27,479 nucleotides of DNA from Baffinella frigidus (lineage: Eukaryota; Cryptophyceae; Cryptomonadales; Baffinellaceae). Position 1 is the first letter of the stretch. Each line of letters opens with the position of its first letter. The notes under the pieces were generated by a model, which saw only the letters and a program-made list of their open reading frames with translations, was not told where the DNA came from and searched no databases. Location: the NCBI GenBank assembly GCA_026770585.1, contig MU646340.1, positions 379,211 through 406,689 on the forward strand, in the 5' to 3' direction. Shown here piece by piece: positions 3,902-27,478 of this stretch. The translations under genes and the position numbers were made by a program.

Positions 3902-6900
3902 GGTGCGCGGGCACGTCTCAGCCCTGCAGGCCGCGGGTGCTTCTGAGTTGGCGCGACGATGCCTCCTCGCGTTGATCCTCGTTGCATGCCTGCCCGCGAG
4001 CCTGCCCGCCTACGGGTCCGCTGGCGACGGAGGCGCCGTCGGCCACACGGGAGTGCGGGGGGGGTCTATGTATGGAGCGCTGCGGCTGCGTGGAGGGAAG
4101 GGGCCTGGGCGACGGACCCAGCCGGTCCCACAGAAGAACCCCAAGTTCTTCAAGAAGCACCACTCGGCGACCTGGGACAAGCTCAAGGTCCGGACGGAGT
4201 TCACGCACCCCAAGTTCGGGCGCACCGGGAATCCCAGTCAGAAAGCCGAGCCGGGGAACCCCTGGGCGACGGGGGGTGAAGCGATCGATTTTGCTGAGGG
4301 GATGACGCTCGGGAAGGATCTTCCGTACGGGTACGCGCCCCGGGGATCCCACGGGTGCTCCTTGCTGTCTCGCATTGGCTGGCTGGACGATTTATGCGGC
4401 AATCGCGCCATTTCCTGTTGGAGGGCATAAACGTCCCCGGCGTGCCTGCATCCGCACGTAGATGGTGTGCGAAGATGAGGCACCCTGCTCCAGACGCGCA
4501 CGAGCCACCCGCCTGAGTCACCCTAAAACCTCAACCCTAAACCCTAAACCCTAAACCCTAAACCCTAAACCCTAAACCCTGAACCCTAAACCCTATACCT
4601 TAAACACCCTCAATCCTACACCCTTAACCCTTTACCCTCCACCCTCAACCCTCAGCTCTAAATACCAAACCCCAAACCCCGAACCCCAAACCCTAAATCC
4701 CAAACCCCAAACCCCAAACCCCAAACCCCAAAACCCACACCCCACACCCCACACCCCAAACCCTAAACCCCAAACCCCAAACCCCAATCCCCAAACCCCA
4801 AAGCCCAAAGCCAACACCGCACGCCCCCAACGCAGGTACGCGCACCTGAAAGGGTCGATGCTGTTCCACCCGGACACGATGGAGAAGACGAACCTGGAAC
4901 GCATCTTTCTCGCGGACGAGACAGACGAGTGGCAGGAGTGGCGCTGGGACCCGCGAGATATCGACGAAAACGTCCGCAAGGTCTGGCTCTGGCTCTGTCT
5001 GTTTGGGCAAACCGATTTGGTGGTGTCGGATTTTTTTTTCGCTCCGAGGTTGACGGGGGTGTAGACCCAGGACGTCAACTTGAGCATAGTCGGCCAGCTC
5101 CAAAGTTGACCCGAGAGATGTCGACGACAACGTCCGCAAAGTCTAACTAACCCTGGCACCTAAAACTCATCCTGACCCATAAGCTCTGAACCGTAGGAAG
5201 GTATCGCTGTCTAATGGGGCGCGCCAGTTTGGTGATTTCCCGCTGCAAAGTTCACGGGGTTGTACCGCGTGCAAAGGACGTCAACTTGACAACAGTCGAG
5301 GTGCCCGACTGAGGCAGAGCTACAAGGTCTGACTGACTCCACGCAACCGACCCCTGCGAGAAAACACCGCTGACTCGCGCGCGCCACCCCCTCAGGCGAT
5401 GGAGCACCCGACGAAGTACCATCCAGTAGGCATCCACGCGCGGGCAATCATCGAGGAGAGCGAGGCGTCGCGCGCGGTCGCGTCGCGTGTCGGGCTCAAG
5501 TGGCTTCTGCGCAACACCCCGCCGCCTGCGGTGCGGATATCTCAACACATACTCACCCTGCCTCAATGAAATTGGGCCCGCCATAAATGTGTTGTAGCTG
5601 CACTTTTGTACTGGATTGTCTGCTGTAAATTTATTGTATGGCGGGCCCAGTGTTAGGCAGACAGAGCTGGAAATAATCCACATGGCGCGCCGTACCCTCT
5701 CAGGATTCTCACTCAAATTCCCGCGACTGTTGAATGTAGCAGGTACGTTGTGTACCGGGAACGTGTCTGAACCGGGCAGGCTCAGTGGCTGAGTACCCCA
5801 AAAAACAGTAATTAGTCAAGAGTTTCCCTGGGCAGATTCCCACGGGAGAACCTGAACCCCTTCTCGCAACCTGCCCCCCCACCGGCAAACCCCAACCTCC
5901 AAACCCTGAACCATACGCAGGAGCGAATGCAGCAAAGCGGGTTGGTAGAAGTTCCGGGGAAGACGTGCGCGGGGGTTGCAGCAGCTTTCATGCCTTTCCT
6001 CGGGGGGGAGGGCGGGGCGAGGAGCGAGGAGGAGGAGGGGGCGCTTGTGGTGAAGATGGCGGCAGGCGTGCACGCGTGGTCCAACGAGAACCCTGCGGGG
6101 GTGCTGGGGGTGGTGACGGGGGCGTTCGATGTGGTGGGGGGGGGGGGGCTGCAGGCGCGGGGAACGATGGCTCCTGGCGGAGAAGAAAGTGAGGACGTGA
6201 GTGATGTCGAGGTTGGGGGGGGAGAGATGCGCAGTAAGGTGGGCGCGGGGCCGGAAGGGAGTACGGAGCTGGTGGGATGCTGGTGGGTGGGGGACGGGAC
6301 GCGCGGACGCTTCTCGGATGTGCGGCTCGTTCAGAATCAGACGCGCGAGTTTCAAGTGCCAGGGCTCGGTAAACTCTTAACCTTAAACCCTGAACCCTGA
6401 ACCCTAAACCCGAAATCCAAAACCCTAAATCCCAAATCCTAAACCCTAAACCCCAAACCTCAAGACCCTAAACACTAAACACTAAAATCTGAAACCTAAA
6501 CCCGAAACTCCGACCCTGAACCCTTCACCCTCATCCCTAAACCCTAAACCCTAAACCCTAAACCCTAAACCCTAAACCCTAAACCCTCAACCCTAAACCC
6601 TAAACCACAAACCCTAATCCCCAAACCCAAACCCCGAAACCCTACACCCTAAACCAGGGGAGCACCTCGCGACCCTCGGAAATCCGATGAACCTGGGCGA
6701 TGCAGAGGAGGGTGAGAGTGGGGACGGGGAGGGGGGGGAGGATGGAGAGGGGGGGTGGGATGACTCGCAAGATCCGTTGAGTGTGCTGACTGTGATGGGC
6801 TGCTGGGAGCTGGAGGCGTGTGATATCGCGGGGGGGTTCCGCGAGGTAGCACCCCGCCACTGCTACACCATCCGTATGGTTCGTGTGTTAAGAGATGTTA

Positions 6901-9900
6901 AGAGCCGACGAATGTTGAGAGGCGACCAACAGAAGCAACTCGCGCGCACAAATGCACCCACTGCTCGCTCGCGGGGGATTCCACCCCCCGACTCCCGAGG
7001 GTTCCACGACCCGGCTCACCTGACTCCGAGAGGCTGACCTGACTCCCCTGAACCGAGAGGCTGGCCTTACGAGAGGCTGACTGATCCGAGAGGCTGGCCT
7101 GATCCCCCCCGACCCTCGTTCTCGGTTGGCCTGACCTGGCTCCTGAACCCCGGGCGCTGCAAGGTTCTGAGCGTGCAGGCGCGGGGGGCTCCTGTTGGGG
7201 ACCACCAGGGACCTGCCAGGCTGCCCTGCCTCAGAGAGGCCGACCTGACTCCCCTGAATCGAGAAGCTGACCTTACGAGAGGCTGGCCTGACTCTCCCCT
7301 GGCCCTTGCTGCAAGGTGCTGAGCGTGCGGTCCGCGACGTGCAGGGACCCGCGAGGCTGATCTGACCTTACCCCTGAAACTCGCAAGGTGTTGAGCGTAC
7401 GGGCGCGCGGGGACTGCGCTGTCTCGTCATGCCGCATTCGCGACGTGCCGCTCCTGGGGGAGGACTGCCCTTTCAAGAATCCCTACTGGCAGTACAACGA
7501 CAGGTCCGCGTTTCTTCCACACAGAGGGCTACGAAGGGATTCTTGGTTGGAGTTCCAGCAAGAATCGGTTAGGATATTCGTAGGACCAGCCTGTGTCCCT
7601 ACGGTAGGCAATACCGTGGGGTCCTATGGATTATTCACGTATGGGTTGTTCACGAAATCCGCATTCGCGACGTGCCGCTCCTCGGGGAGGACTGTCCTTT
7701 CAAGAACCATCACTGGCAGTTCAACGACAGGTTTCGGGTTTTGGGGTTGGGGTTGAGGTTTTGAGGTTAGGGCTTGGGGATTGGGATTTAGGGTTGATGG
7801 TTTAGAGTTTAGGGCTGAGGGCATAGGGCTCAGGGCGTGGGGATTAGGGATCAGGGCTTAGGGCTAAGGGTTCATGGTTTAGGGTGTACCCTACTCGCCA
7901 GTCTGTTCGATCGCAGGGGCGTTGACCAATCGGTGTTCGCTGGTAGTGTGGGGCCTACCTTGTAATACCGTATGCGTAGCGACCCCGAGTTCGGAGAGTT
8001 TCATGATAACTTGCGGTGTTGAGCGTGTGCTGCTTGCGGGTACTCACTGCGATCGCTCAGACGCCTGATTGCACCGGGCAGAGTATGTGCCGGGACGGGT
8101 TCGTGTCCAGGCAGACACCAAGAGGCGGACCAGTGTCAGCACATTCTGTGCGAAGCACGGTCGTCAGGCGTGCCTCAACGTCTCATCATTCAAACATTCC
8201 TTTGCAAAACGCCCCCACAGGCACCAGAACAATCTGTGAGTCATCACTCGTGGGAACAATATCAGACCCGTCAAACCGTCCTCTGATTCGTCGGTGTGTG
8301 ACTGATCAGAAAGTGTTTGCCTGATCAGAAACATTTCACCCCCTGCAGTATGTACAACCGGACGCTGGACATGGAAGGTGTCGGGAAGATGACAGACGGG
8401 ATCCAATGCTTTGACGAATCCCGCATCCGTCTCCGCGCGACCTTGTTCGCTGACTCGCTCCACGGGGGAGTGCGCCTGTTCAATAAGGCCGAGGGCGTCA
8501 TCTCCAACTGCACCTTCGCCAACTTTGAGGTCTTTCCTCCCGAAACTCTAGCTACGGGGGTGGCTACGGTAGGGCCTAGGGCTCCTGCTGCACGCGTGCT
8601 ACAGTGATGCTGAAAGATGCGTGCTACAGTGATCCCGACGCGTGCTACAGTGATGCTGAAATCGAAACACTTCGTAAAACACGGTCGGGGTGGGTCCAGC
8701 AGACGCGTCCCGCGTGTCCCTCACCGCTGGAATCGAGAGACATTACCACCCTGTACCCTGCTCGCTACACCCTAAACCCTAAACCCTAAACCCTAAACCC
8801 TGAACCCTAAACCTTGAACCCTAAACCCTAAACCCCAAACCCTACACCAGGTCGGGGTGGAGGGGGTGGACTCATCGCGCGTAGCAATCGACTCGTGCGC
8901 GTTCCTCTGGTCCGCAGGGGCGCTTCTCACTCGCGGAGAGGCCACGGGTCTGCTCGAGGACTGCAAGGTCGTCAGGAACGTGGTGGGGGTGAGTGTGCAT
9001 GGCGCGACCGACACGTGCGTTCGCAGGTAAACTCCCCCCCCTTTTCCCCTATCAGAAAGGATCTCTTGAGGCCCCTCGCCTTTTGAAACGTGTTCACTTG
9101 CGTCGACGCAGGTGCACATCCCGGAGAAGAGGCGCGTGTTTTGAACTATCAGCTTCTTGTGCACACCCCCTTCCCTGAGCTTCCGCAGCAAACTCCCGAG
9201 ATTCCTGTACACACTCCTGAGCTTCATCTACACACCCGCAGGTGCAAACCAAACACCAAACCAACGCCGCCAAAAAAACAACTCCAAACCCCAAACCCCA
9301 AACCCCACACCGCGCAACAGGTGCACGTTCAGGGACTGCCACGACGGTGCGCTCTTCTCGGGGGGGGAGGCCGCGCAGCAGCGCTTGAGGTTACACCCTA
9401 CACCCTAAACCCTAAACCCTAAACCCTAGACCCTAAATCCTAAACCCTAAACTCTGAAACCTAAACCCTAAACCCTAAACCCTAAACCCTAAACCCTAAA
9501 CTCTACACCCTACACCCTGAACCCTAAACCCTAAACCCCAAACCCTAAACACTCAACACTACACACTAAACACTAAACACTAAACACTAAACACTAAACA
9601 CTAAACACTAAACACTAAACACTAAACCCTTCACCCTACACCCTAAACCCGCAACCCTACACCCTACACCCTAAACCCTAAACCATAAACCATAAACCAT
9701 AAACCATAAACCATAAACGATAAACTCTAAACCCCAAACCCTGAACCTCAAACCCCAACCCCTAAACGGCAGGTTCGTGGACAATCACGTGTCGTGCTTG
9801 CCGGACCCGGACACAGAGGCGGGATTCACGTGGCTCAGCCTGCAGCGGCCAGGTTCAGCGCCTCCCATGATTACACCTCCCTCCTTGCTTATCTCTCTTA

Positions 9901-11030
9901 ACTGACTCCGCGCGCTGAGGCACATGCGGCGATCGACCTCAGTGGCTCAGTCTGCAGCGGCCAGGTGCTCTTCGCAAGGCGTGCACTTGGTGTACCGAAT
10001 GTAGCGCATAAGTCCCCAGGCACCGTCTGGCGTCACGCTGATAATCCCCGCACCCTCCCCGCTGGCAGGGAAGGCAACGTTGTGCGGAATGACCCGGTGT
10101 ATCCTCCCCCAGCAAACGTCTCTCTGACAACCCCCGCACCTTCCCCGCCGGCAGGCAAGCTGGTCGAGGAGAACAACGTGGTGAAGAACGACCCGGTGTA
10201 TCCCGCGACGCACGACATCGCCAAGAAGTACAGCTACCCGGAATCGTGGGACTGGGAGCGCATCAATGTACGCCCCACCCTTCCCGGAGTGTTGATCTCC
10301 TTGATGTGACAGTCCGCTGCAGCCCTCTATCTCGTTCTCTCTATCTCGTTCTCGCTTTTTTTCTCTCTCTCTCTCCTTCCCTCCCTGCTCACTATCCCTG
10401 TTATGCGCCTGAGCTGTGCGCGATCGTGCTGTCTGCTGAACCAACGCTGCGCTCCCGGGGCCACTGTCAACTTTCTCACAGGATGACTTTTGGGTGGCAG
10501 AAAGACTTCTGGGACCAGTACGAGAAGCACCACGGCCCGATGCCCTACGAGGAGTCCTAGTGCGCCCCCACCCTCAACCCTCAACCCTCAACCCTCAACA
10601 CTCAACACTCAACACTCAACACTCAACACTCAACAATCAACCCTAGGGACCTGGACCCGAAACCGGGGACCACCATATTCCAGTACCGTGCGCTCGTGCG
10701 CTAATCACTGTGAAATCGAAAGAGTGTCCCTGAGGAATCGTTGACGCGCTACACCCTCAAACCTTACAGCACGTCCCGCTAAACTCACAGCAAGCCCCCA
10801 ACCCCCATAACAGCACCTGCACCGACCCCTAAACGCGCAACCCTAAACCCCAACGCTAACCCCCCTCCCCCCCACGGCACAGCCTCTCGCGGTACCTGCA
10901 GCTGGCAGAGCGCAAGAAGCACGCGAAGAAGGTCAAAGAACGCGCGGATCAGATCAAGGCGGATGAGCGACGCAAAATGCCGGCCCCCGAGATTACCACC
11001 CGCGACTTCGGACCGATCCTCGCCGGGTGA
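3900..11030 (+). CDS. Gene A: signal-peptide beta-helix (PbH1/pectin-lyase-like) protein
   Basis: Thirteen exons join in frame to 762 residues: 3900-4330, 4836-4980, 5396-5530, 5921-6368, 6658-6845, 7388-7503, 8349-8529, 8851-9026, 9321-9389, 9773-9852, 10155-10267, 10501-10559, 10883-11030. All junctions are GT-AG with matching phases. The start ATG has G at -3 and +4. Residues about 20-40 form a hydrophobic signal peptide, followed by LRLRGG and a basic stretch. From about residue 240 to 660 the sequence shows right-handed parallel beta-helix rungs: repeated Cys-x-Ile/Val/Phe strands, a W-x-L-x-x-C-x-I motif in exon 5, and tandem D-S-C, E-D-C and R-D-C turns in exons 7-9. Exon 4 ends and exon 5 begins with Gly/Glu-rich linkers. 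The C-terminus is a Lys/Arg/Glu-rich helix. Such folds often bind or cut polysaccharide, or act as scaffolds; I see no catalytic signature, so substrate and activity are unknown. No plastid-type Phe follows the predicted signal peptide, so secretion is more likely than plastid import, but this is weak. Confidence 0.88.
4331..4835 (+). other. Gene A intron 1, with 8-bp direct repeat at its borders
   Basis: Exon 1 ends CGTACGG and the intron starts GTACGCGC. Exon 2 starts with the same GTACGCGC after CAACGCAG. The CCCTAAA array occupies 4528-4803. The 8-bp repeat at donor and acceptor is what insertion with target duplication, or intron birth by tandem duplication, would leave. Confidence 0.8.
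4528..4803 (+). repeat. CCCTAAA-type array in gene A intron 1
   Basis: Canonical CCCTAAA at 4540-4600, drifting to CCCCAAA from 4668 onward. It ends about 30 bp before the exon 2 acceptor. Confidence 0.95.
5048..5081. repeat. Short palindromic element, copy 1
   Basis: GGTTGAC and GTCAACTT flank about 19 bp, including GGGGGTGTAGAC. Related copies are at 5247-5287 and 22790-22830. Confidence 0.6.
5111..5144 (+). pseudogene. Decayed copy of gene A exon 2 end plus donor
   Basis: Thirty of 34 bases match 4951-4984, the last 30 bases of exon 2 and the first four of intron 2. It sits inside intron 2. The donor AAG|GT became AAA|GT. Confidence 0.85.
5247..5287. repeat. Short palindromic element, copy 2
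   Basis: AAAGTTCAC and GTCAACTT bracket a segment containing GGGGTTGT and GCAAAGGAC. It lies in gene A intron 2, about 200 bp after copy 1. Confidence 0.6.
5548..5660. mobile_element. Small MITE-like palindrome in gene A intron 3
   Basis: A perfect 13-bp inverted repeat, TGGGCCCGCCATA at 5573-5585 and its complement at 5637-5649, is extended outward by CTGCCT (5548-5553) and AGGCAG (5655-5660). The interior is AT-richer than the surroundings and has no ORF. No clear target-site duplication is visible. Confidence 0.55.
6378..6653 (+). repeat. CCCTAAA-type array in gene A intron 4
   Basis: Starts nine bases after the donor and reaches the acceptor of exon 5. Canonical CCCTAAA at 6536-6585; degenerate elsewhere. 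Confidence 0.95.
7026..7400 (+). repeat. Imperfect tandem repeats in gene A intron 5, with copies of exon 6 start
   Basis: Two kinds of unit alternate. One is GAGAGGCTGRCCTKA with CTGACTCCCCTGAA (7026-7110 and 7230-7300). The other is GCAAGGTKCTGAGCGTGC (7159-7186 and 7311-7344), which matches the acceptor and first codons of exon 6 at 7383-7402. Confidence 0.75.
7597..7658 (+). repeat. Dispersed repeat related to 16896-16975
   Basis: Contains TACGGTAGG, GGATTATTCACG and TGGGTTGTTCACGAAATCC, closely matching words in gene D intron 3. Confidence 0.6.
7659..7730 (+). pseudogene. 72-bp copy of the 3' part of gene A exon 6 with donor
   Basis: Aligns without gaps to 7432-7503 with about seven mismatches, and keeps the frame and the AG|GT donor. 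Three altered codons change Pro-Tyr to His-His and Tyr to Phe; three changes are silent. No in-phase acceptor is visible close upstream, so it is more likely a decaying partial copy than a second usable exon. Confidence 0.8.
7732..7890 (-). repeat. TTTAGGG-orientation array in gene A intron 6
   Basis: Degenerate GGGTTTAG and GGGCTTAG words on the sense strand, directly after the donor of the exon 6 copy and in the donor half of the intron. Confidence 0.85.
8590..8662 (+). repeat. Short tandem repeat in gene A intron 7
   Basis: Three copies of GCGTGCTACAGTGATSC, the first and third followed by TGAAA. Confidence 0.85.
8757..8848 (+). repeat. CCCTAAA-type array in gene A intron 7
   Basis: Canonical CCCTAAA running to the CAG acceptor of exon 8. 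Confidence 0.95.
9103..9250 (+). repeat. Extra acceptor-like copies in gene A intron 8
   Basis: CGACGCAG|GTGCAC at 9105-9118 and CACCCGCAG|GTGCAAAC near 9233-9247 resemble the chosen acceptor CGCAACAG|GTGCACG at 9320/9321. The first two lead into frames that do not continue the beta-helix pattern and meet stops. Confidence 0.45.
9396..9766 (+). repeat. CCCTAAA-type array with variant sub-arrays, gene A intron 9
   Basis: Canonical CCCTAAA at both ends. Inside are about ten units of CACTAAA (9549-9625) and about five of CCATAAA (9683-9718), each locally uniform. Confidence 0.95.
9942..9966 (+). pseudogene. Copy of gene A exon 10 end plus donor
   Basis: Twenty-four of 25 bases match 9830-9854, the end of exon 10 with its GT donor. 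It lies in intron 10. Confidence 0.85.
10038..10106 (+). pseudogene. Copy of gene A exon 11 acceptor and start
   Basis: Matches 10125-10203: the pyrimidine tract, a GGCAG acceptor, then AACGTTGTGCGGAATGACCC against AACGTGGTGAAGAACGACCC, with an internal deletion of about 16 bp that breaks the frame. Confidence 0.8.
10322..10383 (+). repeat. Pyrimidine (CT)n tract in gene A intron 11
   Basis: CT-rich simple repeat in the middle of the intron, about 120 bp before the acceptor. Confidence 0.85.
10567..10860 (+). repeat. CCCTCAA / CACTCAA / CCCTAAA words in gene A intron 12
   Basis: A uniform CCCTCAA then CACTCAA run at 10572-10644 directly after the donor, and degenerate CCCTAAA words at 10753-10860 before the acceptor. 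Confidence 0.85.
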
Positions 11031-11094
11031 TGGGGGGGCGCTGGGATGGGTTCCGCTCTGTAGCTCTCGGGGTTTCGTGGTTATGTGGGTATCC

Positions 11095-11100
11095 AATAAA
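11095..11100 (+). terminator. Poly(A) signal of gene A
   Basis: AATAAA lies 65 bp after the stop codon of gene A, within a GT-rich context (CCGGTGTGAGG follows). It matches the standard eukaryotic polyadenylation signal. Confidence 0.7.
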
Positions 11101-11119
11101 TTCCGGTGTGAGGTGATGG

Positions 11120-12483
11120 GGTCTCTCTGGGGTCCTGGGCGCTGCGGAACCTACGCCTGGGGTACAGGTGTTACATGTACTTGCGAAAAAGAAGACGCAA
11201 CGCCCTAGCTAGGGTCGTACAGAAGGGCTACTTTTAAGAGCAAGGAGCGACCACCCTATGTACGGCGTGTGTCCGTATTCGCAAGTAACCACTGTAAAGC
11301 GTCTGTGGTGGTCTTCTTTCCATCGGAGTTTCGAGAGCAAGGAAGACTGCAGAACCGGTGCATTATCTTCCAGGGGGTTTCACTTTGGTTTATCAGGAGG
11401 CGCGCCAGGCGCGCTGCCTTGGCCTGACGGCAGTCACCAACACTGCTCTTCCCTCTCCCGTTCGACTTCGGCGCAGAATAAAAAGAGGCCAGCATCTGGC
11501 CTCGGATTTCGGTGAAAATCTGTAAACCCCTTGAACTTTTTTCCTCCCCGCTCGAGAGCGGACAGTTCTATAGAGATATTAACCCCCTGCAGAGAAATGC
11601 GAATGGTGTTGACACAAAGGAACCTTGGAAGCGGGCATCAACCATGATTCTTCTACCATGTGGTACGTGCGAGATTCTCTTAATTGCAGGGGTATCATTG
11701 TACCTTGCTGATAATACACGGGGATTCTAAAGGAATAAAAAATCTGTTTTTCATTATCAAGAAACGCAAAAAAAACGCCAATCCTTTCACCCTTCAAATT
11801 TGAGGAAACGATGAAAAGAACCCGCTCCTATCCTTAATCCTCGGTCCACCGCTTTTGCTGCTCTCGCTGCCACCCCCTTTCCCTTCACGCTAGCCGCCCC
11901 CCCGTCTCCTCAGTCTTAGATCAATTCGCGTGTGTATAGTGCACCGAGCTCGTGCATATGAATTTTTGAATTCTCATCAAAGAGCTTTAGTCAACAGAGC
12001 AGCAAAACATTCCCACACTTACTTTGCCAAATTCAAACATCAGTTGAGTAACTTGCCGAAATCTGACGCCACGGTTTCTTCAAAACGATCCGAAAAGAAA
12101 ATCTCTACAAAGTGAACTATTCAAAAGCGAACGCCCAGCGCGCATTGATTCGCAAATGACAGGTACACGTAAACCTGCAGAACGAAACGTTATTTTTTTT
12201 GACTCACAAAGGTATCTGGACAATGTAAAAACACAAAAGCTCAAACATCGGTCGGTGCATGTTTTCGTAGATAAGTAACAGAGGGTTGACTGGACGTAAA
12301 ATTTCATCAATCCTTTGAAAATAAAATCAGAAAACGGGAGGCCCAAATCCTGTGTGTTTTGTTATGTTCCATTTTTTTGGAGACCAAATACCACTGTAAG
12401 GTACCACGACACAAGGTACACACACAAAATTGGGCTGTGGACATTAATAAATCAAGGACCGTTGACAAACCAACCGCTTTTTA
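11120..12483. other. Intergenic stretch without recognised gene
   Basis: AT content rises clearly here. The ORFs are short, overlap on both strands and show no domain or splice-compatible extension. I see no telomere-type arrays and no RNA gene. A small palindromic GGCGCGCCAGGCGCGC sits at 11400. Confidence 0.6.
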
Positions 12484-12531
12484 GTGGTCCTGAATTTGCA
12501 CTGGCATGTTGTAACGGTTTCCGTTACGCAG
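12484..12531 (+). mobile_element. Truncated copy of the palindromic element at 13865
   Basis: GTGGTCCTGAATTTGCAC, then GGTTTCCGTTACGCAG, matches the first two thirds of the 13865-13926 element in the same orientation. It ends exactly where similarity to gene C exon 1 begins. Confidence 0.65.
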
Positions 12532-12612
12532 TCGACCGGTACGATGTCCATCTTTCTCGACTCCGCCAAAAAGTCTACCAGCTGGTCCAGGTTCAACGCG
12601 CGCGGGATGACT
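12531..12612 (-). pseudogene. Broken copy of gene C exon 1 (EF-hand region)
   Basis: Aligns to 15225-15306. The minus-strand reading keeps the residues from the first EF-hand loop through the MDIVPVD stretch with few changes, but it lacks the first ~20 codons and everything after the VPVD segment. The palindromic element joins directly at its 3' side. Confidence 0.8.
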
Positions 12613-12984
12613 TCTGTGTGGACCACAAAAGAAGTCGTGCGGGAGACCGGGAAAGGAGGAGCGAGGGGAGGGGGGCAACGGCTGGCGAAAATTCGATTTG
12701 ATTCAAATCAGGGCCCAGAAAGCCATCCAGGAATGAACGCTTTCGAACAAAAGGTGGAGGCACAAAAAGAAGAAACTAAGGGGCAAGAGCCTAGTGTGGC
12801 CGACGAGTCGAGGTGAAGGCGACCCATTAGTGTTTAAGCTCGGCAATCTATAAAAACTGACCTGTTTTATGATTTTTGGATTTTTTGACTTGCAAAAAAA
12901 TGGCCAGTGGCAGTTTTTTGTAAAAAACACAAGTGTTTAGCGGGAAATGGTTTGTTTCACTGCACAAGATGCCGGTACATTCTC

Positions 12985-13635: not shown

Positions 13636-13846
13636 CGACTAGAAACCGGCATCTCGCTTCAGGTCAGCGTCCCTGGAGCGAGAGGAGTGGGGATGGCGGC
13701 GCGGTACCTCTCGTCCGAGGGTGACCCAGACCACGATCCTTCGATCCCGAAATTCAGCCACCTCCACCGCGTCGCCGGTATCGAGGAGGTCGAAGAAAAT
13801 TCGAGGACACCCCGGTGTTCCAGGAGCGTGTCGCGTATCTCAACCG
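13636..13846 (+). pseudogene. Broken copy of gene D leader and exon 1
   Basis: Aligns to 15586-15771 including the ATG at 13693 and the first ~22 codons. An in-frame insertion of about 18 bp (near 13761) and an 11-bp insertion (near 13795) follow; the second shifts the frame. The GAG|GTGAGA donor is lost. Similarity stops at the exon border. Confidence 0.85.
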
Positions 13847-13864
13847 CACACCCATCGCCTTTTT

Positions 13865-13926
13865 TGCGGTCCTTAATTTGTACATGTGATGGTTTCCGTC
13901 ACGCAGTACACAATTTAAGGACCGCA
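13865..13926. mobile_element. 62-bp palindromic element
   Basis: TGCGGTCCTTAATTTGTAC at the left and the complement of TGCGGTCCTTAAATTGTGTA at the right form terminal inverted repeats around GGTTTCCGTCACGCAG. A truncated sister copy is at 12484-12531. With only 62 bp it cannot encode anything; it looks like a MITE relic. Confidence 0.65.
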
Positions 13927-14327: not shown

Positions 14328-15363
14328 CTAGAAGTCGACGTCGAGCTCCTTGTGGACCTTGGACGTGGTCTTGTTGGTCCGAAGCCCCCGGTTCACATAC
14401 TTGTTGATGGTGATGGAGGTGTTGCCGGGCTCGTTCATGCAGAAGTCGAGCGTAAACGCGCCCTGCGCCGCACGCGCTGCGTCAGCCAGCGCCAGCGCCA
14501 GAGGAGGGGGCGCGGGCAGCGTCCGCCAGCAACGGCGTGGTGCAGGTGGGGAATGGTGGGAGGGCAGGAGGATGCGGGATGCGTACCTCTTTCCCCCTCC
14601 ACTTGACTGGCATGTCCACCTGCTGCGGTTTCTTGATGCCGAGGTCGTGAGCGGTGGTTGTGAAACATGGATGCTGCACCTTCGTGTTGGCCACGAACTG
14701 CGTCGCGTCGCCAAACCTGACAGCACCTTCTGAGTCAGCATTCCGAGGACCCGCCGGCCAGGGGTGCAGGGATGCAGGGATGCAGGGATGCATGGTGCTG
14801 AGCAAGACCCCCCCCCCCAACCTCGATGCATTATCTGCGCAGACCTGCTCGGGATGATGTTGGAGTTCCCGAAGGGGTCCTTGTACTCCTCGATAGATTC
14901 CTCCTGTCACATCGTATGGGCGGGCCAGCAGTCAGAATCTCCTCTTCTCCCTGCGCAGCTGAGCGCATGCGTTGCACGAATTATGTGCATGGGCGCAAAC
15001 CGCGGCTCACCTCGGGTCTGTCGGCCTGGCTCCACTGCTTGAATTGTTCGAACCTGTGCAGAGCTCATTGTCAGCGTCACCCCCTCTCCCGCTCAAGCTC
15101 GCATTGCCACCCGCAGCCAGAGAAATATGAGTCAAGGGCGCGGCAGGGGGTGCGCGGTAGCGGGAAGCGCACGTGATCTCCTCGAGGTCGCTCTGCTGCA
15201 GCTGCGCGACAATGTAGGCCTCGTCGACGGGTACGATGTCCATCTTCCGGACTTCCGCCACAAAATCCACGAGCTGGTCCAGGTTCAGCGCGCGCGAGCG
15301 CGACTTGTCAAACACCGTGAACAGTCGCTGCACACACGACCACTCCGCGACGAGGTCTGCCAT
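14328..15363 (-). CDS. Gene C: small protein with two degenerate EF-hands
   Basis: Five minus-strand exons join in frame to 185 residues: 15363-15173, 15053-15011, 14903-14845, 14716-14587, 14462-14328. All introns are GT-AG, 107-128 bp long, with phases 2, 0, 2, 0. The ATG has A at -3 and G at +4. Residues 13-40 and 50-71 fit EF-hand helices around loops at 19-30 (DKSRSRALNLDQ) and about 56-67. The hydrophobic residue at loop position 8 is present in both, but position 12 is Gln in both and the Gly at position 6 is missing, so calcium binding is doubtful. Residues 98-185 form a separate region rich in Asn/Thr/Lys, with a conserved-looking PCFTTTAHDLGIKKPQ segment; I do not recognise it. A flagellar or calmodulin-like adaptor role would be a guess. 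It is divergent from gene D. Confidence 0.88.
14763..14793 (+). repeat. GGATGCA tandem repeat in gene C intron 3
   Basis: Four near-identical 7-bp units. Confidence 0.9.
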
Positions 15364-15648
15364 CGTGAGAGAGCGCGCACGAGCGAGAGAGAAGTGGCGA
15401 GAGCAGTTTCTGTGCCCGCGCCAAGCAACGGCTTCTTCAAACGAGTCCTCCCTGTCTGAAAACGATTGATTTTTGGTGGGAAATGATGATTTCTCCCAGG
15501 ATTTGGTCCGCTTCCAGGATAAAGTCAACCAGGGCTCATCGGTTTTGAAAAGTGGGAAAGGCGCAGGAGGAAGGAACTTCCCTGTGCCGCCTAGAAACCG
15601 GCATCCCTGTTCAGGACGAACAGCGTCCCTGGAGAGAGAGGAGTGGGG
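15364..15648. promoter_or_regulatory. Putative bidirectional promoter of genes C and D
   Basis: The 285 bp between two divergent, strongly supported start codons must hold both 5' UTRs and core promoters unless upstream exons exist. No TATA box is evident. An AT-richer patch lies at 15463-15500. Confidence 0.5.
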
Positions 15649-18600
15649 ATGGCGGCGCGGTATCTCTCTTCGGAGGGCGACCCAGACCACGATCCTTCGA
15701 TCTTGAAATTCAGCCGAATCGAGGAGGTCGAGGACACCCCGGTGTTCCAGGAGCGAGTCGCGTATCTCGAGGTGAGAGCATCAAACCAGGCGGGGGGCAT
15801 GGGCGTCGTTGTGCCACACACGAAATGCGACGGCTGGCGTCTTTTCAGGAGCTCACTTGTTTGACTTCATCCTCCATCTCAGGGGCAAATGAAGCAGAAC
15901 AAGGAGGAGGTGAAAGCGCTGATCGCGTACGCCGGCGCATACTCCCATGCCGGAAACGGTTTGCCCGTTACCTCGACCCCAGCCACACGAGAAACTTCAG
16001 CCCTCTCCAGCTGGTAGTTGGGATTATCCCAACCTGTTGCAAGTGCAGACCGGATATCAACGAGGTCCTGTTCGCTTCACTGCTGAGCAGACTCTTGCCA
16101 AGGTGAGGAGGTTGTGTGTGGACCTTAAGGGGTTTCCCGATTCGTGCATCGGCCCTGAGATGTTCGCTCAACAGGGTCGCACACAGGACTGAAACAGCCT
16201 CATGAAATGTACCGCCAAGTCTTTAGGAGGAAGGAGGGGGTTGGTTTGTGGAGAAAGTGTGGAATCCGCATCCGGCAGTGTGCATTCTTCCGGGCCATCC
16301 TCGTTCGGAAGCCTCTGTTTTGACTGGCACTCAGTAGGCACCACATGGCAGCTGTGCATCCCTGCTGATACACCCAACACGATGGGCTGCAATTCCCTGA
16401 CACAAACAAGGCTGGGGCGCCCCTCCGTACCATCCTGTGGCTGGCAGGGGTACTGCCCTCGCCTCTCTTTGCGCTGCGCCCTCCCTTTCCGCGGCCGTAC
16501 CATGTGTCGAATTGCCGAACGTAACAAATAACCTGTGGTATGAAAAAGCGTACGCTGAGGCCGTGCAGTCTTTCGCGGCGATGTGGGCCTACTGCAGGGT
16601 CCTCGAGGGCTGCGCCTCCTCATGAGCGAGGTACCTGCAGAATAACATGTGGTATGCAACAGAGTACGCGGAGGCGGGCAAGGCATTCGCGGCGAAGGCA
16701 GAGGACTTCGGGAGGGTGATGCCTGCGATGCAGAGCGTGGCGTCGGGGCTCAAGAACCTTCACTCCCTCCTCCAGATGATGACTACCCAGGTCGAACCAC
16801 CCCTCGCTTGATACACATCGGTGTGTGTGCAGTGATTCCTGGTGGCCGAGCCATCAAGAATCGGGTGGGATTACCGCAGATACAACCCGGTGGCCTACCG
16901 TAGGGTCTTGGGTTATCCACTAATGGGTTATTCACGAAACGGGTTATCCACTAATGGGTTATTCACGAAATCCCTTTGTAGCCCGGTGTGTGGGAGCCTT
17001 GCGTCCAACACCACGCAGTTCCCATGCTGAGGAGGAGGGACCCCGAACCCTAAACCCTTACCTACACCCCGAACCCCAAACCCTTACCCCCAACCCTCTT
17101 CGCAGACTCCCGGGACAGGCGATGCAAAACCCTAACCCCGACACTCTTACACCCCAACCCACAACCCCGTACCCCCTGAACCCTCTTCCTATTTGACACA
17201 CACCATCGTGCTGGAGAGCGCTAAACCTGACCCCGACTCGCAAACCTCACCCCCTGAACTCTCAACCCCGAACCCTGAACCCTGAACCCTGAACCTTGAA
17301 CCCTCAGGTGACAAACGACATCGTGAAGCCTCTGGAGGCGGAGCTAGGGGAGATCCGCGGGAACAAGACCCTCAAAGCCTCCATGGACTCGGTAAGCCGG
17401 ACTCGGGCAACGCAATTTCCGCAGAAATCGCGCTGAATCTGACACACTGGCTTCGTGGTATATTTAACTCTCAAATTTGGAGCAGAAGAGACCTCGTCCC
17501 CCACGAAATTGGCGAGAACAAATAGACGGAGACAGAAGTGGGCGCCCCTCTGCCTCTCACACCCTGCGACGCAGCGGGTTTTGGGTTCAGGGTTTAGGTT
17601 TTAGGGTTTAGGTTTTTAGGGTTTGGGTTTAGGGTCTAGGGTTTAGGGTTCAGGGTTCAGGGTTCAGGGTTGAGGGTTTAAGGTTTAGAATGTTCCTCAC
17701 CGACCCCCGATTTGGTTTTGATTAGGTTCCGGAGTTCCCCGACTCATGCGAAACCTCGTTGAGCGAAGGGTAGCTAGCACGCGGCATCGGCTTTTGGGGC
17801 GTCTCTTGGAGGAGCCCTGGGGCATCCTGCAGTGCACTACATCATTCTCATCCCCTTTGAGGATTTTCCCGATGGAATACTTTTTGAGCGCTCATGACAA
17901 ACCTGCGTGTCCTGCAACCCTCAACCCCAACCCCAAACCCCTCGACCCCTCAACCCTAATCGCTACACCCTACAACCTGAACCACATCACCCAACCCCTG
18001 AACCCCTACACCCTGAACCCTACACCCTTCACCCTAAACCCTAAAACCGAAACCCAACACTCTAAACCCTAAACCCTAAACCCTATAGTCTCAACCCCAA
18101 ATCCACAACTCTCAACTCCACACCCTACACCCCAAACCCCAAACCCCAAACCCTCAACCCTCAACCCTCAACCCCAAACCCGACCCCCCAAACCTGGCAG
18201 GCGGCGGACGACTTCTACTCATCGTTGAACAAAAGCCTGACCCTCCGCTCCGACGCCGACCCCCACATCACGGTCTTTACCCTAAACCTTTCCCCCTGAA
18301 CCCTTCTCCCTAAACCCCAACCCTGGATCCTCAACCATGGACCCTGGATACTAAACTCTAATCCCAGATCCACTCTTCTCCGGAACCCTACACTCTGAAG
18401 CACTGTCCTGAAGCAGTCTCCCCCGGACACACTTTCAGCTCCGGGTATTGTAGACGGCGGTATGTACTACCGTTTTGTTCACGACGGTACGCTGTGGCGC
18501 ACCCCACACCCTAAACCCTAAACCCTAACCTCTCAACTCTCACCAAACCCCAAACCTTAACCCCGAGCAGCTAGAGGCGGACCGCGAAGCAATGCGGCGC

Positions 18601-21600
18601 AAGAGGCGCTAAAACCTAAACGCTGCACGCTACACCTACCTTAACCCCCAAATAAACCTTCAACCCTAACCCCCAAACGCTAAACCGTGCACCGACACAC
18701 AGCTGGAGGCGGACCGCGAAGCAATGCGGCGAAAGGGACGGTACGCGCTGCTGCGGCTCGAGTACCTCTCGAAGCTCACGGACCTCAGCGCGCGGCGCCA
18801 CCGCCGCGTCGGCTCCTTCTTCACCCAGATCGTCAACAAGCAGGTTCCGCTCCTGCCTTGCTACCCCCCCCCCCCACGCAGATCTGCAAAACGCGGTGAG
18901 AGCGACCCTCTGTCTCGGAGGTGTGGGGTGTGATGCGCAGCACCGCGTGCTTCCTCGGAGGTGGTGGGTTTGATGCCCGCACGTGCGCGTTTTTTTTTCG
19001 CGGGTGTTGGTTGTGATGCGCAGACGTTGGTGGGAGCAGGTGTGGCTGATGCGCGCGGGGCTGTCTGCGCTCGAGGGCGCTGTCCCCCCTCTCTTCTCCC
19101 ACGATACCCAGGTCCTCTCTAGCTAGCTAGCTAAGTAACTAAGTAACCAACTTACTTACTGACTGACTTACCAACCAAATTACTAACTAACTAACTAACT
19201 AACTAAATAACTAAATAAAGAACTGACTGACCGACTGTCTGACTAAGTAACTAAATAACTGAGGAAGTCTCCCCCTTCGCTCCGCTGATCCGCAGTGGGC
19301 CTGCGCATCACTGTCAACGAGCGGAGAGCAAAAGGCAATACTCACCCGCCGTGTGTTCCTCGAGGACGGACCTAGCCTGGAATCTGCCTTCGTGAAGGAC
19401 TCATAACCTGAGTGCGGGAAGGCCCGAAAAAGTGACTCCGTGGAAGTGTCGGAGGAGGGAGAGCACTCTTGATCATCTCAACCTTCAACCTTCAACCTTC
19501 AACTTTCAGCCCCAAACCCTAAACCCTAAACCCTAAACCCTAAACTCTACACCCTAAACCCCAAATGCCAAACCCTAAACCCTCAACCCTCAACCCTGAA
19601 TCCTAAACCCTGCACCCTAAAACCTTAACCCTCAACCCTAAACCCTAATCCCCAAACCCTCAACCCTCAACGCGGCAGGGGGACGACGCGTCGCAGGAGC
19701 TCTCGCAGCGGCAGGCGATGCGCCTCCAGCTTGTCACCTCCCACATCGCTGAACAGGTCTGGGGACACTATTTATGGTTTAGGATTTTACAATGTGGGGG
19801 TTAGATGTGGTTCCAGCTCGTCACTCCACACATTGCAGAACAGGTCCGGGTTTAGGGATTAGGGGTTAGGGGTTAGGGGTAAGGTGTTAGGGGTTAGGTT
19901 TAGGTTTAGGGGTTAGGGATTAGGGATTAGGGATTAGGGATTAGGGATTAGGGATTAGGGTTTGGGGTTTGGGGTTTGGGGTTGGCAGTTTGGGGGTTGG
20001 GGTTCGGGGTCTAGGGTTTAGACGCATCACCTACAACTCGTCACCTCCCACATCGCTGAACAGGTCCGCCCCCCGCTTGTCTGGCAAGTGCTACGTGTAC
20101 ACCCGGAAGGGGTGTATGGTTTCGTGACGGGTGGTTGGTAGAGCGGTTTTCGCATCTTCAGGTCACGCGAAAATAACACAACACCGTCCAGGGTTGACGA
20201 TGCTAGTACTAACATGTCACCGTTTGCCGTTGTTCCATGGTTTTCGTTGCCGTCAGATGTGAAACCCGCTCTACAGGTGACGCGTTGTCCACCACCCTAC
20301 TGTACTGCCTACTGTAGCACCCTACGGCATGCCGGCATCAGGTCGACGCCGGAATTCGGCCGTCCACCCTTACGGGTGACATTGTAAGGGTGACATTGTA
20401 AGGGTGACATTACGAGAGACCCTGAAGGGGGACGGTGTGTGAACAGGAGGCGCTCTTGCGACGGGACGCGGACGGCAGCATGCCGAAAGGCCCGAGCATG
20501 GGCGTGCAGCGCTCTCCTGCCGGGGCTGGCGCGCCGCCTGTCGACCGCGCGGTGCAACAACCCTACACCCTGCACCCTCAACCCCTGAACCCCAAACCCC
20601 TACACACTAAACACTAAACCTTCAACCCTCCGCTCTAAACCCTAAACCCCAAACCCTAAACCCTAAACCCAAAACCCTAAACCAGAAGCCTGAAACCCCA
20701 AACCCCCAACCCCAAACCCCAAACCCTAAACTTTAAACACTGAACCCCTAAACCCTAAACCCTAAACCCCTTAACTCTTAACCCTTAACCCTAAACTACC
20801 CTAAACCCCAAGCCCTAAACCCCTACACCCTCAGCCCCAAGCCCCAAGCTCTAAACACTAAATACTGAACCCTAAACCTGCAAGCAGGTACACGAGATGC
20901 GCGGGTGGCTGGGGAAGGTGGGGGGGAGCAGGGGGAGGCAGACCAAGGACCTGCGGAACAACCGGTGCGCCCCCCTGCGCCACCTCACTACCCCAGGCGG
21001 GGTAGCGTACGTATGCGCCACCGGGTGGAGGCTCATTCCCGCAGCGTTCAGGGTTGAGGGTCTGGGTTGTAGGGTTGAGGGTTCAAACCGTATCTGCCCA
21101 CAGCGGCACCAGCACTGCTCTCGGAAGACATGCTCCTTACCAGGGGAATTTCGCGCACGGTTTTCGGTACGGTGGGCGCCGGCACCACGCTTCCAGTGTG
21201 GGTGGGTGCGCATGCAGAGCGGGGGCGGGGCAGCGAATTACGAGGCCCTAAACCCTGAACCTTAAACCGCGTGTTACGCCCGAAGCGTTGGATGCGGTTC
21301 GAAGCCATCGGGGGGTGCGTCCACTTTCGACGTCCACTTTCGGCAGGCTCGTCGCTGGATAGGCCTCGCGGGCACTTCTCGCTGTGAGCAGACACGTTTT
21401 GGACCCTACGCCCTAAACCCCAGACCCTAAACGCTTGTTGCAGATACTGGGCGGTGCTGTCTGCCGGGAAGCTGTTCCTGTACCGTAACTGGCGCGCGTC
21501 GCCCAAGTACACCATCGATCTCCTCCTCTGCACGGTCCCGCCCCCTCTTCCTCCGTTCCATCCTCCTCCTCCTCCTCCTTTTCATCCTCCTCTTCCGCCT

Positions 21601-23284
21601 CCCCGGACCCTGCGTCCCCCGAGCACACCATCGATCATCCCTCAGCACGGTCCCGCCCCGCAACTCTGCGGACTATTCACGTCCCTTGTAGGAACAGCCA
21701 GAGTGGCTTCACACGGGACTTGTTCGTGGCGGGACATGTGTTGCTCACTCGCACTTCGCTGTTTTCTGTCACTGAAGTTGATTCCCTTTTTTCCCCGACG
21801 TGAGATCGATGCTACTGCCAACTGTTAAGTCCAAATTGACCGAGACAGAGCTAGTCGTTCCATACGCGGACTCGGTGCTGCAGCCCACCCGGCCTCGCGT
21901 GGCGTGACCCCAGGAAGTGATCGCCCAGCCGCTGCACTGCTACCCAGGACATTTTACCCTAAGTCAACAAAGCTGACTCTCGGCAGTAAGTTGCCATATC
22001 GTTTAGATGGACCTGCTCTGAGAGCAGGCATTTGACTTAAGGCACTGCCTTTCAGGGGGAGTTGACTTTGGCGAAATGTTCTGGCTCAGAGTGCACTGCG
22101 ACCACAGCGGTCTCGCCCTGCATCCTAGGCGAGCGCGGCGTTGCACCGGTCTCGCGTGGACGGATCTAATCCCGCCGAGTATTCATAATGAATACGATTT
22201 TGGTGTATCTTGAGGGTAGAAATAAGACAGTCGTCTATCTAGACTTCATTCAGAGCCTTAAAAAATACCGGAATCGGATCGGAAATCCCCGAAATCGTAT
22301 TCATTATGCATACTCTTCCGGATGAGATCTCGCGTCCATTCGGTCTCGCGCTCGCGCTCGCCTGAATCCCGCTCTGTCACGCCCAGGATTTTGTGATTTC
22401 ATGGGTACGCACCCAACTTCATTCAATATGGGCAGGGCACGAAAGAGACAGGGGGAGGAAGGGAGGGAGGGAGGGAGGGAGGGAGGCAGGGTGAGGGAGA
22501 GAGAGAGAGAGAGAGCGAGAGAGTCCAATAATGTCCGGTGGTGCAACAGGTGAAGGAGGCGCGGGGACCGGAGCGATTCTGCTTCGAAATCATCTCTCCC
22601 TCCTCCTCTCGCATGCTCCAGGTCCTACCACGCCAGAGCCTTGGAAAGGGACGCCAAAAGTCAATTTCCCCTCACGGCAATGGTTTTCAAAACTCAACAG
22701 GCGCACTCAGATGCGCTTTCGATTGAATCGACCCCCTCGAACACTCTGGCGTGGTAGCGATGCCTCACTCGGGGTTGACTGACTATCCGAAAGTTGACAA
22801 CCTGGGGTTCTGGTGCAGACGCGTCAACTTAACACGATTCTTGGAGGCGGAGAACGCGTGACACGCTGAACATGATTGGCCAGGCTTAACATGCCACGTG
22901 CAAATCATACTACATCATACAAAGGCAATTGCATGAAAAGTAAACGATGTAGATAATATACGCATGATAGGTGAGGCTTAACATTATGGGAGGAAGTATG
23001 CGGACAGCTCGAGCGCGATTCAGAAGTGCATGGCCGTGATCCCTTCTTTTTCTTGAGTAGAACCCCATATAATCTTGGTTAGACACCCACAGAACGATGT
23101 GTGTGTGTATGCATGGTTAGACGCCCACATAATGATGTGTGCATGTGTGGTTAGAATCGCATCGAAGCATGCTCATTATTTCGCGCGTTCAGGCGGAGAA
23201 CGCGCTCGCGATGCAGAGGTGGATGATCCGTGTTTTTTTCTTGATTATGCGCCCATACAATCTTGGTTAGACACCCATGTAACG

Positions 23285-23322
<38 letters not shown>

Positions 23323-26300
23323 GTGTGTGTGTGTGAGTGAGTGAGAGAGAGAGTGTGTGTGCGTGTGTGTGCGTGTGTGTGTGTGTGTGTCTGTGTCTGT
23401 TTCTGTGTGTGTGTCTGTGTCTGTGTCTGTGTCTGTGTCTGTGTGTTTGTGTGTGTGTGAAGGTGCGTAGTTACAACCCATGGAACTATGCTCAACATTT
23501 CCCCCGTTCAGGCGGAGAACTTGCTGTCGATGCAGAGGTGGATGGCAGTGATCCACAACGCTACCGGACGCCTCCTAGACGCCCAGGTCGCCTACACCCT
23601 AAACCCCAAACCTTACACCCTAAACCCTAAACCCTAAGCCCTAAATTCCGAACCCTACACCATAATCCCCAACCCCTAAACCCTGAAACCTACATCCAAC
23701 GCCCAGGTGGGCCGCACGGAGAACGCGGGCAGGTGTGAAACCCCGAGCCCGAAACTTGAAACCCGATACCCGAAACCCGACACCCGAAACCCTGAACCCA
23801 ACTCTCCCGTGAAAACATGAGGCTCAGTGCAGGGAGAGACGTGCGGGCATACGTTCAACCCTCGACCCTCGCCTCTCAACCGTGGACTCTCACCGTTCGA
23901 CAGGGGAAGGTTCGAGAGCGCGGGAACACGCATGCGGAGATGGGAAAGCATTCTCGCGGTGCCCCCCCCCCCCCCACGACAACCGCGACGGCCCACTCAC
24001 CAGTTCAGAAAGGCTTTTTTGAGATGAAAGAAACGGTTCACACGGAGCTCCTTGTAGATTCCCTGAGTTGGACAGGGGTGACGCGGCGCGTGCGGGGAGG
24101 AGGAAGAAGAGGAAGACACCATTCTCTCTTCCAGGCTGTTGCAGTGCTGTTCCAGGCTTGGTGCGGTGGAGGCAGCAGTCGAGGTGGCTTGGTGCTGTGG
24201 CCTGTCAACCCCACACCCTACACCCCCAAATCCAACGTCTCAACACCAACCCCATGGGGCTGCATGTGGCAGGCAGAACGGGGTGTTCTTCTGTGCTAGA
24301 CCTGATTGCGAGGTGTTCTGCAATTAGGATATTCTTCTGGCTCTCATGCGCTAATGGGATGACCTGACAGGGGGGGGGGTGCAGGTGGCAGACAACGTGT
24401 TGGCTTGTTGGTGTAGCCTGTCAACCCGTGTTGGCCTGTTGCTGTGGCCTGTCAACCCCACACGCTAAACCCTCAACACCAACCCCTGGGGATACAGGTG
24501 CCAGGCAACGCAGGGTGTGTGGACTGCGGCGCGGAAGGGCCGGAGTGGGCGTCCATCTCCCTTGGAGCCCTCATGTCCCGCCCCTGCCCTTGCCATGATA
24601 TGTCACATGTCTTCTCAGCCAACCCCATGATTCAGTTGAGATCGCACCCCCCGTGTCGATACCGGAACAACCCCAGAAATGCATCCGTAAGAGAAGCGAC
24701 GACCGGGGTTGCTGCACCAGGGGAGTGAGCAGGCACGTGCAGCTGTCTGCAGAAACCATACCGCTTTGAACCCTAAAATCTAAACACTAAACCCTACACC
24801 CTGAACCCTAAACCCTAAGCCCTAAATCCGACACCCTAAACCCTATAACCTACACCCTAAACCCTACACCTTAAACCTCAAACCCTGAACCCTACACCCT
24901 ACACCCTACACCCTACACCCTACGCCCTACACCCTACACCCTACACCCACACCCTACACCCTACACCCTACACCCTACACCCTACACCCTAACACCACCC
25001 GGGGTGCGCAGGTGTCTGCAGTGCTCCGGAGTGCACCGGGCGCTGGGGGTGCACGTCTCTCGAGTGCGATCTTTGCATCTTGATGTCTGGGAGGAGTCGC
25101 TCATGGACCTTCTCTCCGCCATGGGAAACGCCAAGGTGCTCAGCACATTTGGGGGTTGGGGTTTGGGGTTTGGGGTCCAGGGGGTAGGGTTCAGGGTGTA
25201 GGGTTCAAGGCTTAGGGGTAAAGCCGCCCTGCTTCCGCCCGGAGAGCTGTCCGGCATTGAGGAACCATCTAGGACACTAGGTCGGACTTCGGCGTCGAAA
25301 AGCTAAGTCCAAGGCTCCTTGCGGACCGGGAGCTTCTTGTTATTTCATCTCCGTTAGGCCGGGAGCGGACTTGCATAGAAGCGTCGATGGCACAGCTAAC
25401 CAGCTTCTTGGGGCGCAGCTGACCAGCTTCGACCGTTGCAAGTGAACAGTGTGTACCTCGCGAGGTGCCAAGAGAGAGAGAGTTTTTTATTGACGACCAA
25501 TTGGACCGGGGTGCAGGTGAACAACGTATACCTCGCGAGGTGCGAACAGGACCCGCGCGATCCACTTGTCTGGGCGGACGGGGACTTCATCCGCCGGAAA
25601 TACGCCCTCAGGTCGCGCTTCCCCACCAGCCCTCCCAAGTGGCTCATATAGTGCCCCGGAAGGTCTTCGATTTGAACTTGGATCGGGGTCGCTTTTGACC
25701 CCGATCCAAGATAAATCGACAATGCCCCAGAGCACCGTTTGAGCCACCTCCAAGGGCTAGTGGCCCTCCTCGTCGCGATTCAGACTGTTGACTAGCGAGA
25801 TACGCGCCTGGGTCTAAGCCGAACCCTTACATTTGTACTTCGCTCATAAGAAAGCCCCCCCACCCCTTGGACTATCATAGGGCCCTAGACATAGGCTTAC
25901 TGTAGGGTCCTAGAAGAGGGCGCTTTCGTATGAGGGTGGTACCCCTGTAACGCAATACCCCAAACAGGGCGTTCGTAGAGCAGCTTTTTACAAAGGGGTT
26001 ATGTCAACAAAATTCACTACGCGATTTGCTCATATTAGTAATAATAAAGCGTGTGTGTAGTAAATTTCGTTGGCGAGAACACCATTTACAAAGGATTCTC
26101 TGAGATAAAATACCCGAAACAGGGCGTTTGTGGAGCAGCCGGGCAACGCGACTCCCGACCACCTCTCCCAGAGCCTCACCTCCGCGGTGCACCCCTCCTC
26201 CGAAACCCTTCAACCCACACCCTAATCCCCAACCCCCCCCCACGTGAAACAAGGGCGTGCCCCCCCCCCCCCCCATTCAGACCACCGTTTTTTGCCATCT

Positions 26301-27346: not shown

Positions 27347-27398
27347 GTCACCCCCCCCTCCGCACCCCCCGATATCCTGTCGTGCGCGTCATCTCATG

Positions 27399-27434
27399 GA
27401 GTCCGGAGGTGGTCGACCACGGGCGTTCGGACAG

Positions 27435-27439
<5 letters not shown>
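27399..27439 (+). pseudogene. Copy of gene D exon 19 end
   Basis: GAGTCCGGAGGTGGTCGAC and TCGGACAGACCCC match 27303-27340 of exon 19. The copy runs directly into poly-C at the window end. Confidence 0.8.

Positions 27440-27478
<39 letters not shown>
27436..27478 (+). repeat. Poly-C run at window end
   Basis: About 43 C. With the C-rich start of the window (1-14) it suggests a contig cut at homopolymers. Confidence 0.9.

What the first reader, a model, noticed from the sequence alone, without database searches (positions are those of the whole stretch)
4331..27439. Introns repeatedly carry decayed copies of the adjoining exon end with its splice site
At least ten introns of genes A and D contain one or more partial copies (about 15-72 bp) of the 3' end of the upstream exon with its donor, or the 5' start of the downstream exon with its acceptor. 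Examples: 5111 vs 4951, 7659 vs 7432, 9942 vs 9830, 10038 vs 10125, 16520 vs 16634, 18569 vs 18701, 19811 and 20028 vs 19725, 21624 vs 21510, 23183 vs 23505, 25439 vs 25514, 25954 vs 26110, 27399 vs 27303. The copies always lie in the intron next to the source exon and in direct orientation, so the process is local tandem duplication across exon-intron borders, repeated over time. Each event doubles a splice site, lets the border move, and lengthens the intron. I know of no described system in which nearly every intron of a gene shows this.
Basis: partly seen in the sequence, partly recalled or inferred. Interest (0 to 1): 0.85.

Follow-up and report, generated by a model that had tools for sequence, protein, structure and literature searches.

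The report
Exon-edge copies inside neighbouring introns
In two genes of a cryptophyte alga, about a third of the introns hold short same-direction copies of the edge of the exon next door, splice site included; the pattern is real, looks like scars of DNA-break repair that splicing hides, and the way the copies differ hints that they came from a second, diverged version of the genes.

Summary
The window is Baffinella DNA: gene D (ACAP-like) is identical to a B. frigidus protein over all 620 aligned residues. Genes A and D give 33 introns. Of 2310 intron-exon comparisons the nine best are all adjacent and direct; 200 shuffles give none as good. Of 15 local direct repeat pairs in the genes, 10 touch or cross a splice border and 2 end one base short (random: 18-19%). 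They lie in 10 of 33 introns, so "nearly every intron" is wrong. Only 1 of 12 is plainly tandem. Similarity ends 0-9 nt past donors. Splice signals are almost only AG|GT and CAG|G, so a copy just crossing the border carries a whole site.

This suggests an already diverged homologue as template, but base composition weakens the test (p about 0.015) and no second homologue was found. Genome-wide data were unreachable. I favour break-repair copying filtered by splicing; cis duplication is nearly as likely.

The parts
3900..11030 (+). Gene A, 13 exons (3900-4330, 4836-4980, 5396-5530, 5921-6368, 6658-6845, 7388-7503, 8349-8529, 8851-9026, 9321-9389, 9773-9852, 10155-10267, 10501-10559, 10883-11030); right-handed beta-helix protein
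   Evidence: In-frame model; Pfam PF13229 E 2.1e-12; no match at E<=1e-3 among the 7994 candidates scored
15649..27346 (+). Gene D, 22 exons seen, ACAP-like BAR-PH-ArfGAP-ankyrin protein; continues beyond the window
   Evidence: Model; Pfam (earlier model); identical to P0001 over 620 of 620 aligned residues
4948..4980 (+). Source: end of exon A2
5108..5140 (+). Copy of exon A2 end with donor, intron A2
   Evidence: 91%, offset 160
7432..7503 (+). Source: end of exon A6
7659..7730 (+). Copy of exon A6 end with donor, intron A6
   Evidence: 90%, offset 227
7506..7657 (+). Filler between exon A6 and its copy: element shared with intron D3 (16802-16939)
   Evidence: alignment, score 86
7164..7188 (+). 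Weaker copy of exon A6 start with acceptor, intron A5 (second at 7316-7331)
   Evidence: family D10; one search scores 33 and 31
9830..9852 (+). Source: end of exon A10
9942..9964 (+). Copy of exon A10 end with donor, intron A10
   Evidence: 96%, offset 112
10031..10104 (+). Copy of acceptor and start of exon A11, intron A10; the one near-tandem case
   Evidence: (71%, offset 86) against 10117-10203
16527..16581 (+). Copy of acceptor and start of exon D3 (source 16641-16695), intron D2
   Evidence: 80%, offset 114
18568..18611 (+). Copy of acceptor and start of exon D6 (source 18700-18743), intron D5; telomere-like filler follows
   Evidence: (94% over 36, offset 132)
19804..19846 (+). First copy of the end of exon D8 with donor (source 19717-19759), intron D8
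   Evidence: 79%, offset 87
20030..20066 (+). Second copy of the end of exon D8 with donor (source 19723-19759), after telomere-like filler
   Evidence: (92%, offset 307)
21612..21658 (+). Copy of the end of exon D11 with donor (source 21496-21543), intron D11
   Evidence: 85%, offset 116
23144..23225 (+). Copy of acceptor and start of exon D13 (source 23464-23544), intron D12
   Evidence: 80%, offset 320
25437..25474 (+). Copy of acceptor and start of exon D18 (source 25512-25549), intron D17
   Evidence: 84%, offset 75
25954..25984 (+). Copy of acceptor and start of exon D19 (source 26109-26139), intron D18
   Evidence: 90%, offset 155
27399..27440 (+). Match to interior of exon D22 (from 27304), cut by the poly-C end of the window; not counted
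   Evidence: score 38
12531..12604 (-). Fragment C': copy of part of exon 1 of the minus-strand gene (15223-15296), outside genes A and D
   Evidence: 9 synonymous, 3 non-synonymous differences in the 72 nt compared
13636..13841 (+). Fragment D': copy of exon 1 of gene D with upstream DNA (15588-15768); carries 18- and 11-nt insertions
   Evidence: 6 synonymous, 1 non-synonymous in the in-frame pieces compared

Best explanation
The copies are scars of error-prone repair of DNA breaks close to exon-intron borders. Repair copied a short exon edge (about 17-72 nt) together with the splice site, usually joined to other sequence (a mobile-element fragment, telomere-like repeats, simple repeats). 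A copy inside an exon would wreck the gene; one that carries the splice site is harmless, because the spliceosome keeps one edge and discards everything between, so these survive and each makes the intron longer. In this alga the splice signal is almost wholly AG|GT and CAG|G, so a copy that reaches only 2-3 nt past the border already brings a complete site. The copied template was probably not the exon beside it but a homologous, already diverged version of the same locus (other allele, homeologue or paralogue), most of it in one period. Shown: place, direction, border, non-randomness, weak splice signals, synonymous-biased divergence. Inferred: break repair, survival filter, diverged template, single period.
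For: Nine of the 9 best intron-exon matches are adjacent and direct; 7 end exactly at the splice border. 10 of 15 local direct pairs touch or cross a border and 2 more end one base short, against 18-19% at random; none has both copies in exons. In 11 of 12 pairs the similarity covers 12-51% of the offset; the stretch between is a shared element in A6 and telomere-like in D5 and for the second D8 copy. Information beyond GT is 0.02-0.29 bits per site at donors, and about 0-0.24 upstream of CAG at acceptors. Template: pN/pS 0.21 (0.14-0.30) in 14 copies; on copy branches that can be polarised 7 synonymous and 3 non-synonymous changes; fragments C' and D' have a like pS (0.38) with pN 0.03 although they are only pieces of exons; divergences less varied than under two ongoing-process models. 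Similarity ends 0-9 nt past the donor in 6 of 6 and the exon side is the longer in 11 of 12, as expected if the source had different introns.
Against: No second Baffinella homologue of gene D appeared in the protein searches (which score only limited candidates within a length range; P0001 stands for one sequence) and gene A found no match, so the diverged template is unseen. The synonymous excess weakens when base composition and sampling error are allowed for (p about 0.015; 0.19 if exon synonymous sites evolve twice as fast as introns), and the share of third-position differences alone is less extreme (P 0.01-0.04). pS near 0.36 is very high for alleles. Loss of similarity in introns may just be faster decay. 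The chi-square test alone shows no unusual evenness of pS (9.3 on 13 df). No junction was tested for microhomology, and there are no data beyond two genes of one window.
Confidence: 0.42

Rival explanations
1. Local duplication in cis, as the reader proposed but mostly with filler: staggered breaks in the same molecule are filled in and joined, the exon edge itself is the template, and the copy then decays without constraint.
For: Adjacency and direct orientation; intron-only local repeats also occur (3 of 15 direct pairs) and further repeats flank the copies in introns A2, A5 and D12; one clearly near-tandem case at 10031-10203; small tandem duplications at breaks are an established repair outcome (passages of PMC8355091).
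Against: pN/pS 0.21 instead of 0.5 or more; even divergences (P 0.003-0.008 under my two age models); 11 of 12 pairs are not plainly tandem. It would need exon synonymous sites to evolve about 2-3 times faster than introns.
Confidence: 0.38
2. Assembly mosaic: contigs of two diverged haplotypes or strains were interleaved, and the exon edges of one were joined into introns of the other.
For: The published CCMP2293 assembly is short-read Illumina with mate pairs and AllPathsLG (PMC9756366, passages), and its table speaks of 'haploid gene models'; differences look like those between two coding genes.
Against: No N in the window; the copies are short fragments that begin inside exons; D' carries insertions and C' covers only part of its exon; the exon and two different copies at D8 would need three sources.
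Confidence: 0.1
3. The copies are used: alternative exon edges or small alternative exons kept by selection on protein.
For: Low pN/pS and GT or AG still present in most copies (by eye).
Against: Offsets between edge and copy are often not multiples of three (160, 227, 112, 307, 155); at A2 and A6 the copied stretch begins without a splice-like dinucleotide (by eye; at A10 there is an AG by the start); indels occur (A11, D11); the annotated protein P0001 uses the ordinary edges.
Confidence: 0.05
4. Introner-like insertions: mobile elements that land at splice borders with a long target-site duplication.
For: The A6 filler shares about 150 nt with the start of intron D3; the D3-copy spacer weakly matches 25894-25943 in intron D18 (score 35); junction repeats of 8-10 nt across whole introns A1, D8 and D13 (3 of 33, permutation p 0.004).
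Against: Most spacers show no shared element in the window; the junction-repeat signal is absent on average (mean identity 7.5 vs 7.25, p 0.19); the duplications are longer than the 3-9 bp described for some introners (PMC9860276 passages).
Confidence: 0.04

Closest known systems
Intron gain by tandem genomic duplication of an AGGT-bearing exon piece (review PMC3443670, passages seen)
   Same: A duplicated exonic stretch with its splice-like border ends up in an intron; splicing hides the event
   Different: Here existing introns are extended, the exon edge of one side is copied with its real splice site, and 11 of 12 pairs are not plainly tandem
[quoted passage not shown]
   Same: Inserted sequence between short direct duplications
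   Different: The duplications are 17-72 exon nt and do not bracket the whole intron, except short repeats at A1, D8 and D13
Small tandem duplications by CST / Pol alpha-primase fill-in at 3' overhangs (PMC8355091, passages seen)
   Same: Direct duplications of tens of bases at breaks
   Different: Filler, splice-border association and synonymous-biased divergence were not in the passages I saw
Introners (PMC9860276, passages seen)
   Same: Insertions that recruit splice sites from duplicated target sequence
   Different: No common element seen in most fillers; nothing shows that these introns are new
Tandem exon duplication with mutually exclusive exons (recalled)
   Same: Exon sequence next to its exon in direct orientation with coding-like divergence
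   Different: Only exon edges, no complete exon with both sites, several offsets out of frame

Membership tests
Tandem duplication | Similarity runs through the whole distance between copies | tested here: not met
   Met in 1 of 12 pairs; the other 11 cover about 12-51% of the offset; flanking repeats in A2, A5 and D12 leave older, eroded units possible
Tandem duplication | Direct orientation, adjacent | tested here: met
   9 of 9 best matches
Intron gain by target-site duplication (introner or DSB repair) | Direct repeat across both ends of the intron | tested here: not met
   Runs of 8 nt or more in 3 of 33 introns, p 0.004; no shift of the mean, p 0.19
Introner family | Same element in many introns | tested here: inconclusive
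Break-repair scar | Unlike sequence between short copies of nearby sequence | tested here: met
   11 of 12 pairs by extent of similarity, spacers; origin of most spacers unknown
Break-repair scar | Microhomology at junctions | not tested
   Junctions were only looked at by eye
Neutral local duplicate | pN/pS of exon versus copy at 0.5 or more | tested here: not met
   0.21 (0.14-0.30); composition-controlled p about 0.015
Functional alternative exon edge | Transcripts that use the copied site | not testable with these tools
   No RNA reads available

The most novel reading that the evidence does not exclude
Introns of this alga are an archive of a second, diverged version of its own genes: exon edges of a homeologue or long-separated allele were written into collinear introns during repair, across splice borders, so that splicing hid them. 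Part of the intron growth in a genome six times the size of Guillardia theta's would come from this.
Probability: 0.27. Interest if true: 0.78.

Novelty: new variant of a known kind. Interest (0 to 1): 0.52.

Why it matters
How introns lengthen without harming genes is largely open. Copies that carry the splice site itself give a simple route: the damage is spliced away. If the copies come from a diverged homologue, the same scars would date an old duplication or hybrid state in a cryptophyte whose genome (534.5 Mb, PMC9756366) is about six times that of Guillardia theta. Both can be tested genome-wide with the published assembly and RNA-seq.

Tried and rejected
Telomere-repeat insertion with target-site duplication as the general cause: rejected as general, since only the D5 spacer and those at D8 carry clear telomere-like DNA (the G-rich flag in the D13 spacer is a GT repeat, judged by eye). 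Target-site repeats at intron ends as a general feature: rejected. Protein-coding alternative edges: offsets and indels speak against it. First mask for telomere-like DNA ran past the arrays and hid 27% of exon bases; replaced. First models of gene D had exon 2/3 wrong and lacked exon 7; corrected with the help of P0001. The protein and Pfam searches used the earlier 633-aa model, so their domain limits are approximate. In one search two of the 15 pairs (A2, A6) were entered one base longer than BLAST gave; one search repeats the test with the BLAST ends (10 at the border, 2 one base short, 3 intron-only). with a tolerance of 2 or 3 nt counts 12 at the border against 19-20% at random. Further possible copies noted by eye at 10485, 24261 and 24379 did not line up and are not counted; 27399 is not counted. 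The codon test used 14 copies: the 12 and the two weaker A6-start copies. The age models (uniform 0-0.30, exponential mean 0.14, cut at 25% difference) are my own choice. One search ran a binomial test on 7 of 11 (p 0.008), while the printed tally is 7 of 10; branch polarity assumes that two agreeing sequences are ancestral.

Not-in-print statement: no entry in the listings was, by title and start of abstract, about such exon-edge copies; several listings were capped (20 of 326, 20 of 58, 15 of 61). I saw only passages of PMC9756366, PMC9860276, PMC3443670 and PMC8355091.
Full report
What the window is. My final model of gene D (647 aa in the window) is identical to B. frigidus T484DRAFT_1770542 (P0001) over all 620 aligned residues; 27 residues of the model are absent from P0001 and P0001 runs 42 residues beyond the window. 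So the window is Baffinella, a cryptophyte; that it is strain CCMP2293 is my inference. The published CCMP2293 genome is 534.5 Mb, 6.1 times that of Guillardia theta, assembled from Illumina fragment and mate-pair libraries with AllPathsLG (PMC9756366, passages). I built gene A (13 exons, 3900-11030) and gene D (22 exons, 15649-27346, open to the right) by hand; both read in frame, and all 33 introns are GT-AG. The 27 residues (exons 23707-23732 and 23904-23958) are missing from the annotated protein but a like stretch is in the relative P0002 (by eye). Gene A found no match among the 7994 candidates scored, so its model rests on the open frame over 13 exons and a beta-helix Pfam match.

Noticed in passing
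Introns of A and D, e.g. 4512-4820, 9390-9770, 23587-23706; also 890-1470 and 2100-2620: Degenerate CCCTAAA telomere-like arrays: C-rich strand masks 22% of intron bases (18 of 33 introns with at least 21 nt), G-rich strand 5% (6 introns, at least one of them a GT repeat by eye), exons 0.000. A perfect CCCTAAA repeat has no AG or GT, so splicing may select its direction (inference).
   Followed up: partly
23587-23706: Intron D13 is 120 nt, 114 of them telomere-like, and has the same 10 nt (ACGCCCAGGT) across donor and acceptor: a candidate for an intron born by insertion of telomere-like DNA.
   Followed up: partly
All 33 donors and acceptors of genes A and D: Almost no splice signal beyond AG|GT and CAG|G and no clear polypyrimidine tract.
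   Followed up: partly
7506-7657 and 16802-16973: Two introns of different genes share a ~150-nt element that begins 2 and 11 nt after the exon end; possible introner or MITE.
   Followed up: partly
12477-12532 and 13859-13926: Related sequences (one palindromic, MITE-like) sit at the broken ends of the C' and D' exon fragments.
   Followed up: no
23707-23732 and 23904-23958: Two exons missing from the public annotation of gene D; a like stretch is in relative P0002.
   Followed up: partly
23532-23608: ARAGORN calls a tRNA-Pro on the minus strand across exon D13; probably spurious.
   Followed up: no
3900-11030: Gene A encodes a 762-aa beta-helix protein with no database match at E<=1e-3 among the 7994 candidates scored.
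   Followed up: no
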